The notes beneath the pieces were generated by a model, which saw only the letters and a program-made list of their open reading frames with translations, did no database searches and was not told the origin of the DNA. This document shows, piece by piece, positions 2,827 through 5,444 of a DNA stretch of 49,357 nt. The DNA lies in the NCBI RefSeq assembly GCF_026798195.1, contig NZ_JAPQEZ010000006.1, forward strand, positions 28,361 through 77,717. The letters are read 5' to 3'. The stretch is from Lentilactobacillus senioris. Its GTDB lineage: Bacteria > Bacillota > Bacilli > Lactobacillales > Lactobacillaceae. The position numbers and the translations under genes were made by a program. The first letter of the stretch is position 1; each line of letters starts with the position of its first letter.

Positions 2827-3144
2827 TCATCCACCTACAATCTTTAAGGCATCGTCCACTGACCTAGCCACCCCGTACAAAACATTGGGATATTTTTTAA
2901 GCATGGCAGCAAACCTTTTCTGATCATCTCTCAACTTTCCGGTTTCATTTTTACACTCAATAAAGAAAAATCTTCCGTCTGAATTTCTGAAACCAAACAA
3001 ATCGGGATACCCTTTGGGCAATCCAGTATCAAACCAACGGCCATTTTCCATTAGCACTTTTCCCACGTTAGCCCGGAAAATTGTACAGCCAGCTTGCGAC
3101 ACTGCCACCCGAATATCATTTTGTATTTTTTGTTCTCGTGTCAC
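2827..3144 (-). CDS. VRR-NUC domain nuclease (phage Holliday-junction/replication nuclease)
   Basis: 105 aa from a GTG at 3144: GGAGGG lies 7 nt upstream, while a longer in-frame GTG (3159) lies before this SD. The VRR-NUC core is clear: GLPKGYPDLFGF (metal-binding Asp), GRFFFIECKNETGKL (E-x-K) and DDQKRFAAML. The fold belongs to the PD-(D/E)XK superfamily. Phage single-domain members are thought to resolve branched DNA during replication or recombination. It is the first gene after the origin-like repeats, which end only 18 nt before its start, so the repeats may also affect its transcription. Confidence 0.9.
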   Translation of the reverse strand: MTREQKIQNDIRVAVSQAGCTIFRANVGKVLMENGRWFDTGLPKGYPDLFGFRNSDGRFFFIECKNETGKLRDDQKRFAAMLKKYPNVLYGVARSVDDALKIVGG

Positions 3145-3161
3145 AGTTAATCCCTCCACAC

Positions 3162-3413
3162 GGTAGTCGCTTGGTAATCACTTAGTAGTCACTTGGTAGT
3201 CACTGCTTTCCCTTACTCTCCCAATAGATACAGCACATTTATACTAAAAATAGCTTCTCAAAACTTTTCTATACCCTATATACCCCTTATATATATAAAT
3301 ATTATTATTATTAAAATATATAGTATTAGTAACTACTCTGTTCTTTATCCCGCTTGTAGCAAGGGCTTAGGGGTAGTCACTTAAGTGACTACCCAGTGGC
3401 TCTAGTGACTACT
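3162..3413. repeat. Iteron-flanked AT-rich segment; candidate prophage replication origin
   Basis: Four tandem 11-bp units (GGTAGTCACTT consensus) fill 3162-3205. A further unit at 3371-3382 begins a perfect 24-bp palindrome (3371-3394), and inverted units follow at 3383-3393, about 3395 and 3404-3413, with one more degenerate inverted unit at 3328-3337. Between the two arrays is an AT-rich stretch (about 3240-3330: alternating TATATA and ATTATTATT runs) of the kind that melts at origins. It lies between the VapE helicase (its stop codon is inside the last unit) and the VRR-NUC nuclease, beside a primase-polymerase. The arrangement matches iteron-type origins; the initiator is not identified. 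Apart from these repeats the 264-nt gap holds no gene. Confidence 0.6.
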
Positions 3414-4659
3414 TTTTTCTAAAATATCCTCTTTTAGGAGAACCTTCTATTTTCCTTTGCCCTGCTTTCCAATCATTATGATTGTCCATTACATACTTAA
3501 TCTTCTTTGCCATTTTTCTATTTTTAACTAAATTATCTTCACCTAAGTGAAGGGCAATATCTGAACTGGTAATAAAATCTCCAACCCATTCAGCTAAAAT
3601 CTCTTCAATAGCCTCTTCTTCTGCATCAATGTACATAAATGATTTTCGATGTTCTTCTAGTAACGATTCCTCATCTTCATCAAGTAAGAATTTAAATCCC
3701 TCGCGATACATAGCGGTAAATTCGCCCCACAGTTGAGAAACTATTTCGGGAGTTAATTCTGTTAATGGTGACTTCGTTTGCAGTTGTTTGTTAACTAAGT
3801 TGGGCATAAACCGACGCTCACCAGTTTTATCTTTTAGGTAAGTTAGTTCGTTAGTAGTACGAGCCATAACAAAACTTTTAGCTCGTCTAACAGTCATATG
3901 ACCGTATGGTTTGCGGTACTCCAACGTTTCAGAACTGATAAACTTCTTTAGAATTTCAAAGCTAGAGTGGTTGGTAGCTGTCATTTCATCATCATTGATA
4001 ATTAAAGCTCGCAACATATTGGCGTAATTATCTTTGTTCTCAAAGTCAGTAAATTGATCGGTGTACCAGCCGTTAGCCATTTTCTTTAAAAAAGTTGTTT
4101 TACCGGCCCCTTGCCCACCAATCAAATCCAGTACATAATCGAATTTCATTTCAGGGTGGTAAGCCTTAGCTACTGCTCCTACAAAAAATATTCTGGTCTG
4201 TAAACTGGTAACGGCTGAACGTTCCACTCCTAAAAACGTTGGTAGTAAGTCGTCACTTCTGATTTCTCCATCCCAGTTTTTTTCGCATTCTTCAAAGTAA
4301 TCAAGAACGGGATTAAAAACATTTCTGCGAGCTACATTAGTCATTGCTGAACGTAATAAATTATCTTTAAAAAGTACCTTATAGGTTTTTTCGATATATC
4401 CTAAAATCGCTGGCGGATAATCATCGTCAATCGTGCCTTTCTCTAAAAATAATTGTGGAATATCGCTTAACAATTCAATTTCATAAGTGAATTCATTAAA
4501 AGCAATCTTTCCGTGTAAGAGTGGATCACGATCTAAAATTAATTCAACATTGGTTAAGCTGTTAGCGACGATGTTGCCTTTGTCGTTTCGCCTAAAATCA
4601 TCGATCGGCATATTGGTCACTTTACTGTCGTATTCCTCAATGGCATCTTCAACACTCAA
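3409..4659 (-). CDS. VapE/VirE-family phage helicase (replicative ATPase)
   Basis: 416 aa, start TTG with GGGAGG 7 nt upstream and a 4-nt overlap with the primase-polymerase gene. Walker A GGQGAGKTT is at about residues 181-189 and Walker B-like ALIINDDEM at about 218-226; RRAKSFVMARTTNE and TGERRFMP are typical of the virulence-associated E family (Pfam VirE). Despite the name, these are phage and satellite superfamily-3-like helicases acting with a primase at the origin. The partner primase-polymerase is directly upstream and the iteron array directly downstream. Confidence 0.9.
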   Translation of the reverse strand: MSVEDAIEEYDSKVTNMPIDDFRRNDKGNIVANSLTNVELILDRDPLLHGKIAFNEFTYEIELLSDIPQLFLEKGTIDDDYPPAILGYIEKTYKVLFKDNLLRSAMTNVARRNVFNPVLDYFEECEKNWDGEIRSDDLLPTFLGVERSAVTSLQTRIFFVGAVAKAYHPEMKFDYVLDLIGGQGAGKTTFLKKMANGWYTDQFTDFENKDNYANMLRALIINDDEMTATNHSSFEILKKFISSETLEYRKPYGHMTVRRAKSFVMARTTNELTYLKDKTGERRFMPNLVNKQLQTKSPLTELTPEIVSQLWGEFTAMYREGFKFLLDEDEESLLEEHRKSFMYIDAEEEAIEEILAEWVGDFITSSDIALHLGEDNLVKNRKMAKKIKYVMDNHNDWKAGQRKIEGSPKRGYFRKK

Positions 4660-5444
4660 TTTTTAACCTCCCTTCTACGTAATTCTTTTTTTAACATTGA
4701 TTCAAATGTACGGTTAACTTCGTTATCAGAGAGCGGGTTATTCGTGTTCTGGTTAGCCACTAAAGCTAGTTGATATGCTTCCTTGGCATTTACTCCCCGG
4801 AATAACAAACCGCCTATAAACGACGCTAAAGCATTATTTCGGCCACCCGTTTCTCCCAATCCATTAACAATTTTTTCGAACAATTCGCTAGTTGCTGAAC
4901 GTTCTCCGCTTGCCTTAAATTCCGTTGGAGAATAATTATTAGGCGCTTGTTTGTTAATCGCACGAATTAACTCTGGAGTAGCTTTAACAATTGGTTCATG
5001 GTTTAACCACTCATACCGCTTTTCGTGATTAATACTGGGAGCAACCACCACATAATTATTAATATGAGCTTTGATATCCACTCCTGGAAGCCAACCAATG
5101 TTTTGCTGAACTGATAAATCATCCCGTTTCATGTAAAACAGTTGCTGGCCTCCGCCTGCAGTCGTTTGTGCTAGAGTTTTCCGGAAAAAATCCGGGTGGT
5201 TTAATTCTCGAATAGATTTAAATCCATCAGCCCCATTTTCGTGACGATCAATATCAACAACGAAAAAATTAGTCGTTCTCAAAGCAATATTGGCATATGG
5301 ATGTTCCTGCCAAATTTTAGTAATTTCATCAATAGTTAATGGCGGTTGGTCAGCAAATTTAACCAGTGGCTTCTTGCCAATCATTGGCAGAACACTAAAC
5401 CCATGCTTAGCGTAATCAACCGCAAAATTAACTAGGTTTTTCAT
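4656..5444 (-). CDS. Primase-polymerase (prim-pol, AEP family)
   Basis: 262 aa. The N-terminal bifunctional DNA primase/polymerase domain spans about residues 8-170: GFSVLPMIGKKPLVKF, the metal-binding VVDIDRHENG, TAGGGQQLFY, and GVDIKAHINNYVVVAPS. The C-terminal part (170-262) resembles a primase C-terminal helical region (GGRNNALASFIGGLLFRG). It should synthesise primers for phage replication together with VapE, whose gene overlaps its stop. SD GAGG about 10 nt before ATG. The 73 nt between this gene and the DUF669 gene hold only a short hairpin. Confidence 0.92.
   Translation of the reverse strand: MKNLVNFAVDYAKHGFSVLPMIGKKPLVKFADQPPLTIDEITKIWQEHPYANIALRTTNFFVVDIDRHENGADGFKSIRELNHPDFFRKTLAQTTAGGGQQLFYMKRDDLSVQQNIGWLPGVDIKAHINNYVVVAPSINHEKRYEWLNHEPIVKATPELIRAINKQAPNNYSPTEFKASGERSATSELFEKIVNGLGETGGRNNALASFIGGLLFRGVNAKEAYQLALVANQNTNNPLSDNEVNRTFESMLKKELRRREVKN

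What the first reader, a model, noticed from the sequence alone, without database searches (positions are those of the whole stretch)
3162..3413. Iteron-flanked, AT-rich origin between VapE helicase and VRR-NUC
Four tandem 11-mers on one side, a 24-bp perfect palindrome with inverted copies on the other, one degenerate copy inside, and an AT-rich core. About nine copies of one motif within 250 bp next to a primase-polymerase and helicase strongly suggest a theta-type phage origin. I know of no described initiator matching GGTAGTCACTT. The initiator could be VapE itself, the primase or one of the HTH proteins.
Basis: partly seen in the sequence, partly recalled or inferred. Interest (0 to 1): 0.7.

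Follow-up and report, generated by a model that had tools for sequence, protein, structure and literature searches.

The report
Phage replication origin with helicase-matched repeats
A prophage carries a probable start site for copying its DNA, built from repeats flanking an AT-rich stretch, and comparison with related phages suggests that the last few residues of the neighbouring helicase read those repeats and change when the repeats change.

Summary
The repeats are real: eight copies of GGTAGTCACT in about 250 bp, in two sets around a 79% AT core, directly 3' of vapE. Sfi21 and A2, whose records annotate an origin, have it at the same place, and PICI/SaPI origins share the layout, so this is very probably the phage origin. 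New here: in 87 window-type origins the repeat word varies (38 words), and it tracks the beta-hairpin wing (residues 394-416) of VapE's predicted C-terminal winged helix (partial Mantel z 6.2, 0 of 1000 permutations), not Prim-Pol. Residue 401 is the best of 479 columns for one repeat base. Hence VapE, a relative of PriRep1 (7PDS), is the likely initiator. Limits: no binding or replication was measured; VRR-NUC's first 35 residues also track the word (z 3.9), so linkage contributes; a held-out test of the residue-base rule gave 7 of 18. The origin is a new member of a known kind; the wing-repeat pairing is the interesting part.

The parts
3162..3205 (+). Right-hand iteron set: four tandem 11-bp copies (GGTAGTCGCTT GGTAATCACTT AGTAGTCACTT GGTAGTCACTG), beginning 3 bp from the VRR-NUC start codon
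3212..3226 (-). Second conserved origin element, TATTGGGAGAGTAAG (family form CCTTGGGAGAGTAAG), not an iteron; function unknown
   Evidence: 3 or fewer mismatches in 21 of 43 window-type units, 0 of 43 shuffled; phage A2 origin has it with 1 mismatch; only 4 of 63 Streptococcus-type origins have it
3232..3345 (.). AT-rich core (79% A+T), presumed unwinding region
   Evidence: function inferred
3328..3337 (-). Degenerate iteron (AGTAGTTACT) at the edge of the AT core
   Evidence: site 71 bases after the vapE stop
3371..3394 (.). 24-bp perfect palindrome: two iterons head to head (3372-3382 plus, 3383-3393 minus); no terminator-like site found there
3403..3413 (-). Left-most iteron, overlapping the vapE stop codon (reads AGTAGTCACTA on the minus strand)
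3409..4659 (-). vapE: helicase with VapE-like domain (PF05272), proposed self-loading initiator; best fold match 7PDS PriRep1
3412..3480 (-). Codons 394-416 of vapE: beta-hairpin wing of the predicted C-terminal winged helix, proposed iteron reader (residue 401 codon 3457-3459)
4656..5444 (-). Prim-Pol (PF09250 + PriCT_1), presumed primase at the origin
2827..3159 (-). VRR-NUC nuclease gene bounding the origin

Best explanation
3162-3413 is the replication origin of a temperate, tail-sheath-bearing prophage. VapE, encoded next to it, is the initiator: its C-terminal winged-helix domain binds the iteron sets on both sides, VapE rings assemble there, the AT core opens and VapE is loaded as the fork helicase, with Prim-Pol making primers. 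The iteron has a part common to most relatives (CACT) and a variable part of about six bases; the beta-hairpin wing of VapE (residues 394-416) reads the variable part, residue 401 reading the base three before CACT (A in the window, where residue 401 is Gln). Shown here: the repeats and their place, repeat sets at that place in relatives, the wing-word co-variation; predicted: the winged helix. Inferred: binding, ring assembly, melting, priming, origin activity.
For: Position: Sfi21 and A2 records annotate an origin at the 3' end of the helicase or primase gene. Repeat sets of one word (3-12 sites) lie 3' of vapE in all 87 window-type origins scored, with 38 words. Word distance tracks VapE 394-416 after removing body identity: partial r 0.29, z 6.2, 0 of 1000 permutations, 43 units; residues 394-405 alone give z 5.5, and no scored site begins more than 33 bases before the stop. 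Prim-Pol z -1.2 on 39 units. VapE pairs with at least 95% body identity: wing identity 0.98 for 152 same-word pairs, 0.73 for 41 different-word pairs by site sharing. Five clades of at least 90% body identity contain more than one word. Residue 401 ranks 1 of 479 columns for base -3, and 1 of 471 with one unit per clade; the rule Gln-A, Lys/Arg-G, other-T holds for 24 of 25 main-class units and 23 of 24 Streptococcus-type combinations, shuffles reaching at most 17 and 20. AF2 model: helices 346-357, 365-371, 381-392, strands 397-404 and 407-414. Best fold match 7PDS, PriRep1 with dsDNA. In SCCmec the isolated Cch2 C-terminal domain binds repeats 3' of its gene (PMC7581432 section 6).
Against: No binding or replication data. 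VRR-NUC first 35 residues also track the word (z 3.9, 39 units), so physical linkage explains part of the signal; whole VRR-NUC z 1.4. With one unit per clade the wing Mantel test is weak (25 units, z 1.9, p 0.027). With curated words the pair contrast shrinks (same word 265 pairs 0.81, different 42 pairs 0.73). Held-out rule test: 7 of 18 scorable by a mechanical register. In the 35 long-wing units Arg pairs with G in only 4 of 7 at base -3; the other three fit only if that clade is read one base later. The register of the Streptococcus-type words was set by me after seeing them. 26 of the 87 words were set by hand.
Confidence: 0.84

Rival explanations
1. The segment is the origin, but another protein (Prim-Pol, an HTH protein, host DnaA) is the sequence-specific initiator, and the VapE wing co-varies with the word only because it is physically linked and exchanged with the origin by recombination.
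For: VRR-NUC N-terminus also tracks the word (z 3.9). In natural pairs such as L038/L136 and L100/L104 the low-identity tract runs from the wing through the origin.
Against: Whole VRR-NUC z 1.4 and Prim-Pol z -1.2 against wing z 5.2-5.9 on the same units. Residue 401 is the top column of 479 over three proteins, also with one unit per clade. Gln-A and Arg/Lys-G pairings fit side-chain preferences known to me (recalled) and recur in distant clades. L115/L119 keep 92% identity in the bin 100-150 bases after the stop (AT core) while the iterons differ. HTH proteins and DnaA were not tested.
Confidence: 0.1
2. The repeats are operators for a transcription regulator (for example of VRR-NUC, whose start lies next to the tandem set) rather than an origin.
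For: Repeats abut the VRR-NUC start; four tandem plus inverted sites would suit cooperative binding.
Against: Two sets around an AT core and the position match annotated origins and PICI origins; only 1 promoter-like match in 3100-3500, shuffles give 1.4. A double role is not excluded.
Confidence: 0.04
3. The palindrome is an intrinsic terminator or RNA element and the rest is chance.
For: 24-bp perfect palindrome just after vapE.
Against: No terminator-like site found in 3100-3500; the copies are far above chance and repeat sets recur, with other words, in relatives.
Confidence: 0.01

Closest known systems
Streptococcus phage Sfi21 origin (NC_000872, misc_feature 'origin of replication, 302 bp non-coding region, phage inhibitory sequence')
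   Same: Prim-Pol, then a helicase-type gene, then an AT-rich non-coding origin with short repeats (sequence); blocks phages when in high copy number (PMC6356513, passages read)
   Different: The gene before it is Pox_D5/DUF5906, not VapE; by eye its repeat is of the form GTTACT/AGTAAC
Lactobacillus phage A2 rep_origin (NC_004112)
   Same: rep_origin annotated at the 3' end of the primase gene; shares the CCTTGNGAGAGTAAG element
   Different: By eye its repeat is of the form ACGGGAGGAT; the gene before it is one 770-residue primase, not separate Prim-Pol and VapE
SaPI/PICI Rep-ori replicons
   Same: Two iteron sets flanking an AT-rich region immediately 3' of rep (PMC6092414, passages); Rep C-terminal domain recognises the origin (PMC7581432, passages)
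   Different: Those are satellites; this is a prophage with terminase, portal, head, tail sheath and tail genes. [quoted passage not shown] here it is in phages
PriRep1 (PDB 7PDS, 'Similar to D. nodosus vapE')
   Same: Best fold match, TMq 0.78 for chain B; only convincing sequence relative in the PDB
   Different: 25-27% identity; the sequence alignment stops before the C-terminal domain. Its paper was not held
SCCmec Cch2 origin
   Same: Direct repeats with AAGTG iteron 3' of the helicase gene, bound by its C-terminal domain (PMC7581432, passages and section 6); AAGTG is the complement of the CACTT end of this iteron
   Different: Cch2 contains a Primase_Cterm/D5_N-type domain and its authors found three iterons
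PLE RepA/ori of Vibrio cholerae satellites
   Same: DNA-binding domain of RepA and the origin co-vary and seem to have been exchanged more than once (PMC8263062, passages)
   Different: RepA_N domain at the other end of a different initiator; no residue-level pairing in the passages I saw

Membership tests
PICI/SaPI-type Rep-ori (self-loading initiator helicase with origin 3' of its gene) | Origin immediately 3' of the initiator helicase gene | tested here: met
   The repeat set begins at the vapE stop; that it is an origin is inferred
PICI/SaPI-type Rep-ori (self-loading initiator helicase with origin 3' of its gene) | Two iteron sets flanking an AT-rich region | tested here: met
PICI/SaPI-type Rep-ori (self-loading initiator helicase with origin 3' of its gene) | Helicase with a C-terminal dsDNA-binding domain | tested here: inconclusive
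   VapE domain, predicted winged helix at 346-414, fold match to PriRep1; a prediction, binding not measured
PICI/SaPI-type Rep-ori (self-loading initiator helicase with origin 3' of its gene) | Initiator binds its iterons and drives autonomous replication | not testable with these tools
   Needs gel shift and plasmid assay; co-variation only
Phage-inducible chromosomal island (as an element) | Satellite that depends on a helper phage's virion genes | tested here: not met
   Own terminase, portal, major head, tail sheath and tape-measure genes on the adjoining 20 kb
Sfi21/A2-type phage origin | AT-rich region with short repeats at the 3' end of the replication helicase or primase gene | tested here: met
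Theta replication | Theta intermediates | not testable with these tools
   none

The most novel reading that the evidence does not exclude
Across VapE phages the last 20 or so residues of the helicase and the iterons form one interchangeable specificity unit: a beta-hairpin wing, with residue 401 setting one iteron base, changes together with all eight or so dispersed iterons while most of the helicase and the AT core stay the same. Phages would thereby switch between mutually blind origin types, perhaps to escape origin-based interference from co-resident prophages, satellites or multicopy origins.
Probability: 0.5. Interest if true: 0.72.

Novelty: new member of a known kind. Interest (0 to 1): 0.55.

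Why it matters
If right, it names the initiator for a large group of temperate phages of lactic acid bacteria and streptococci, shows that an origin layout described as special to PICIs occurs widely in phages, and offers natural pairs of near-identical helicases with different targets, so that how a self-loading helicase chooses its origin can be tested directly. It could also let origin compatibility groups of dairy phages be predicted from sequence, which bears on origin-based phage resistance.

Tried and rejected
Single-linkage word families merged distinct words into one family of 56; that test was discarded and replaced by curated 10-base words. In the curation 26 of 87 words were set by hand (14 of them one group, L036 and L072-type, whose degenerate sites I read as TGTAGTCACT); L250 and L037 were dropped for lack of a secure register, and L001 earlier because its vapE match is broken. 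Terminator and promoter readings: no support. Own-genome search for further close pairs of exact copies: none outside the segment. Incompatibility idea (two prophages in one isolate must differ in word): in the three isolates I compared, two have different words (G026: L011/L030; 2622736439: L125/L140) and one has the same word (2901969171: L100/L101), so no conclusion. Universal residue-base code: not supported by the held-out set (189 loci, 137 with a C-terminal domain already seen, 28 new ones, 18 scorable, 7 holding). Read by eye in the clade of L147, Arg pairs with G in L357, L361/L362, L365/L366 and L367, but Leu pairs with A (L355/L356), Met with A (L364), Tyr with C (L368); L354 and L359 (Arg, scored A) are ambiguous. 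L380, L405 and L406 (Arg, scored T) and L370 (Arg, A) failed too; they look like the L046 type, where the place of residue 401 is uncertain. Literature: searches found 0 papers; some searches gave listings, and none of the titles and abstract beginnings shown describes VapE with iterons in phages of lactic acid bacteria; the library holds open-licence papers only.

Full report
What is there. The segment 3162-3413 lies between VRR-NUC (2827-3159) and VapE (3409-4659), with Prim-Pol next (4656-5444), all on the minus strand. It holds four tandem 11-mers, an AT-rich core, a degenerate copy, a 24-bp palindrome made of two head-to-head copies and a further copy that overlaps the vapE stop. I count eight copies at 2 or fewer mismatches in 10. 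The core 3232-3345 is 79% A+T. A pattern of two close exact copies occurs in the genome only in this segment, twice. The window has an integrase gene and the adjoining 20 kb has terminase, portal, head, tail sheath and tape-measure genes, so the element is a prophage, by the sheath probably with a contractile tail, and not a satellite.

Is it an origin? The Sfi21 record marks its 302-bp origin at the end of the gene that follows Prim-Pol, and the A2 record marks rep_origin at the 3' end of its primase gene. [quoted passage not shown] All these fit the window. I put the origin reading itself above 0.9; replication of this phage was not measured.

Relatives. Of 257 loci then held, 255 had a vapE match and 254 were usable, giving 185 distinct origin regions (its printed table was cut). 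Of 90 distinct window-type origins (VapE match of at least 50% identity) 89 were taken (L001 left out) and 87 were given a 10-base word. They hold 38 words and 3-12 sites each, against 0.39 per shuffled origin. The usual form is a variable part followed by CACT: for example GGTAGT-CACT (window), GGTTTA-CACT, TGAATA-CACT, GGTGGT-CACT, ATTAGG-CACT. Site positions are similar from phage to phage. The window's word recurs in phages whose VapE is only about 62% identical (among loci L088-L102), while a VapE 80% identical has another word (L002). A group of metagenomic phage contigs (habitat not looked up) has the same word directly 3' of a 744-residue fusion protein with a VapE domain.

Who reads the word? 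Over 43 units (same word and at least 90% body identity merged), word distance correlates with the distance of VapE residues 394-416 after the identity of residues 1-355 is taken out: partial r 0.29, z 6.2, 0 of 1000 permutations. Windows 391-405 and 401-415 give z 5.2 and 5.4; windows inside 351-395 give 2.0-3.2; elsewhere none exceeds 2.4. Residues 394-405 give z 5.5, and 5.6 when the identity of 356-393 is the control; no scored iteron begins more than 33 bases before the vapE stop, so the same DNA does not encode both. Prim-Pol gives z -1.2 and whole VRR-NUC 1.4 on 39 units each. In pairs with at least 95% body identity, wing identity is 0.98 for 152 same-word and 0.73 for 41 different-word pairs by site sharing (ambiguous pairs set aside), or 0.81 for 265 and 0.73 for 42 by curated words. 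Five clades of at least 90% body identity contain more than one word. In nucleotide alignments of six pairs with different words, identity falls from 64-96% in the bin 100-51 bases before the vapE stop to 46-72% in the last 50; in L038/L136 milder divergence starts some 600 bases earlier, and L043/L125 and L042/L117 differ along much of vapE. In L115/L119 the AT core stays 92% identical while the repeats differ.

Structure. The AF2 model (41 sequences, mean pLDDT 88.6) ends in helices 346-357, 365-371, 381-392 and strands 397-404 and 407-414, that is a winged helix whose hairpin wing is the co-varying segment. The best fold match is 7PDS, PriRep1 with dsDNA, TMq 0.78, also the only convincing sequence relative in the PDB. 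A paper by Qiao et al. 2022 on staphylococcal self-loading helicases, seen as a reference, was not held; that 7PDS belongs to it is my recollection.

One residue and one base. In 35 long-wing units residue 401 pairs with base -3: Gln with A in 8 of 8; Phe, Tyr, Ser, Val, Ile, Thr with T in 12 of 12; Lys with G in 3 of 4; Arg with G in 4 of 7; His with T in 2 of 3; Asn with A in 1 of 1. Leaving out the 7 units of the L144/L147 clade, which I think read one base later, 28 main-class units remain; the rule Gln-A, Lys/Arg-G, other-T (His unassigned, 3 units) holds in 24 of 25, and among 24 Streptococcus-type combinations in 23. The latter come from 40 wing rows: I set the register after seeing the words, left out 10 rows as ambiguous (L045-L048, L066, L067, L191, L217, L220, L223) and merged 6 near-identical ones. 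Residue 401 ranks first of 479 columns of VapE, Prim-Pol and VRR-NUC over the 28 units, and first of 471 with one unit per clade (19 units, rule 16 of 17). Eight short-wing units, with five residues missing from the hairpin, agree less at bases -5 and -4 (0.59, 0.76 against 0.93, 0.97), as if a shorter hairpin read a shorter word.

Results against. VRR-NUC's first 35 residues track the word (z 3.9): linkage is part of the story. One unit per clade weakens the Mantel result (25 units, z 1.9, p 0.027). A held-out set of 28 new C-terminal domains gave 18 scorable, 7 holding, with a mechanical register. Read by eye, Arg-G held in four wing types of the clade of L147, but Leu-A, Met-A and Tyr-C appeared, so apolar-T is not general; the mechanical register misplaced at least one (L357), and other Arg cases (L354, L359, L370, L380, L405, L406) failed or are ambiguous. 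I therefore claim 401 as a likely determinant, not a universal code.

Second element. CCTTGGGAGAGTAAG is found in 21 of 43 units (0 shuffled), in 20 of them 173-214 bases after the vapE stop, that is on the VRR-NUC side of the AT core, and in A2 with one mismatch; in Streptococcus-type origins it is rare, 4 of 63. It occurs with many different words. A primase start or a host-factor site is a guess.

Why switch? In V. cholerae satellites the RepA DNA-binding domain and origin co-vary, and a phage nuclease that cuts the origin may have selected for change (PMC8263062, passages). In S. thermophilus the Sfi21 origin region blocks phages in a copy-number-dependent way (PMC6356513, passages). Either kind of pressure would favour phages whose origin a resident element cannot mimic. 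This is inference.

Verdict. The origin is a new member of a known kind; the wing-iteron pairing is the part worth an experiment.

Noticed in passing
window 3212-3226 (minus): A second conserved element, CCTTGGGAGAGTAAG in the family, found with many iteron words and shared with phage A2; function unknown.
   Followed up: partly
L297, L288, L263, L304, L316 (iteron clusters, e.g. L297 2973-3212): A group of metagenomic phage contigs has the same word GTAGTCACT 3' of a fusion protein; in L297 Pfam finds BT4734-like, PriCT_2 and VapE domains.
   Followed up: partly
L283 2428-2593: Sixteen AGTGACTAC-like copies in one orientation on a contig without a VapE match; a different kind of array.
   Followed up: no
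L001 5001-6244; genome G023 contig C9 (L014, L031): vapE is in several pieces or ends early in these loci, which share one origin region (one group of three) and may be one species; repeats are still present.
   Followed up: no
L100 and L101: Two prophages named from one IMG isolate carry the same iteron word, which an incompatibility rule would not predict.
   Followed up: no
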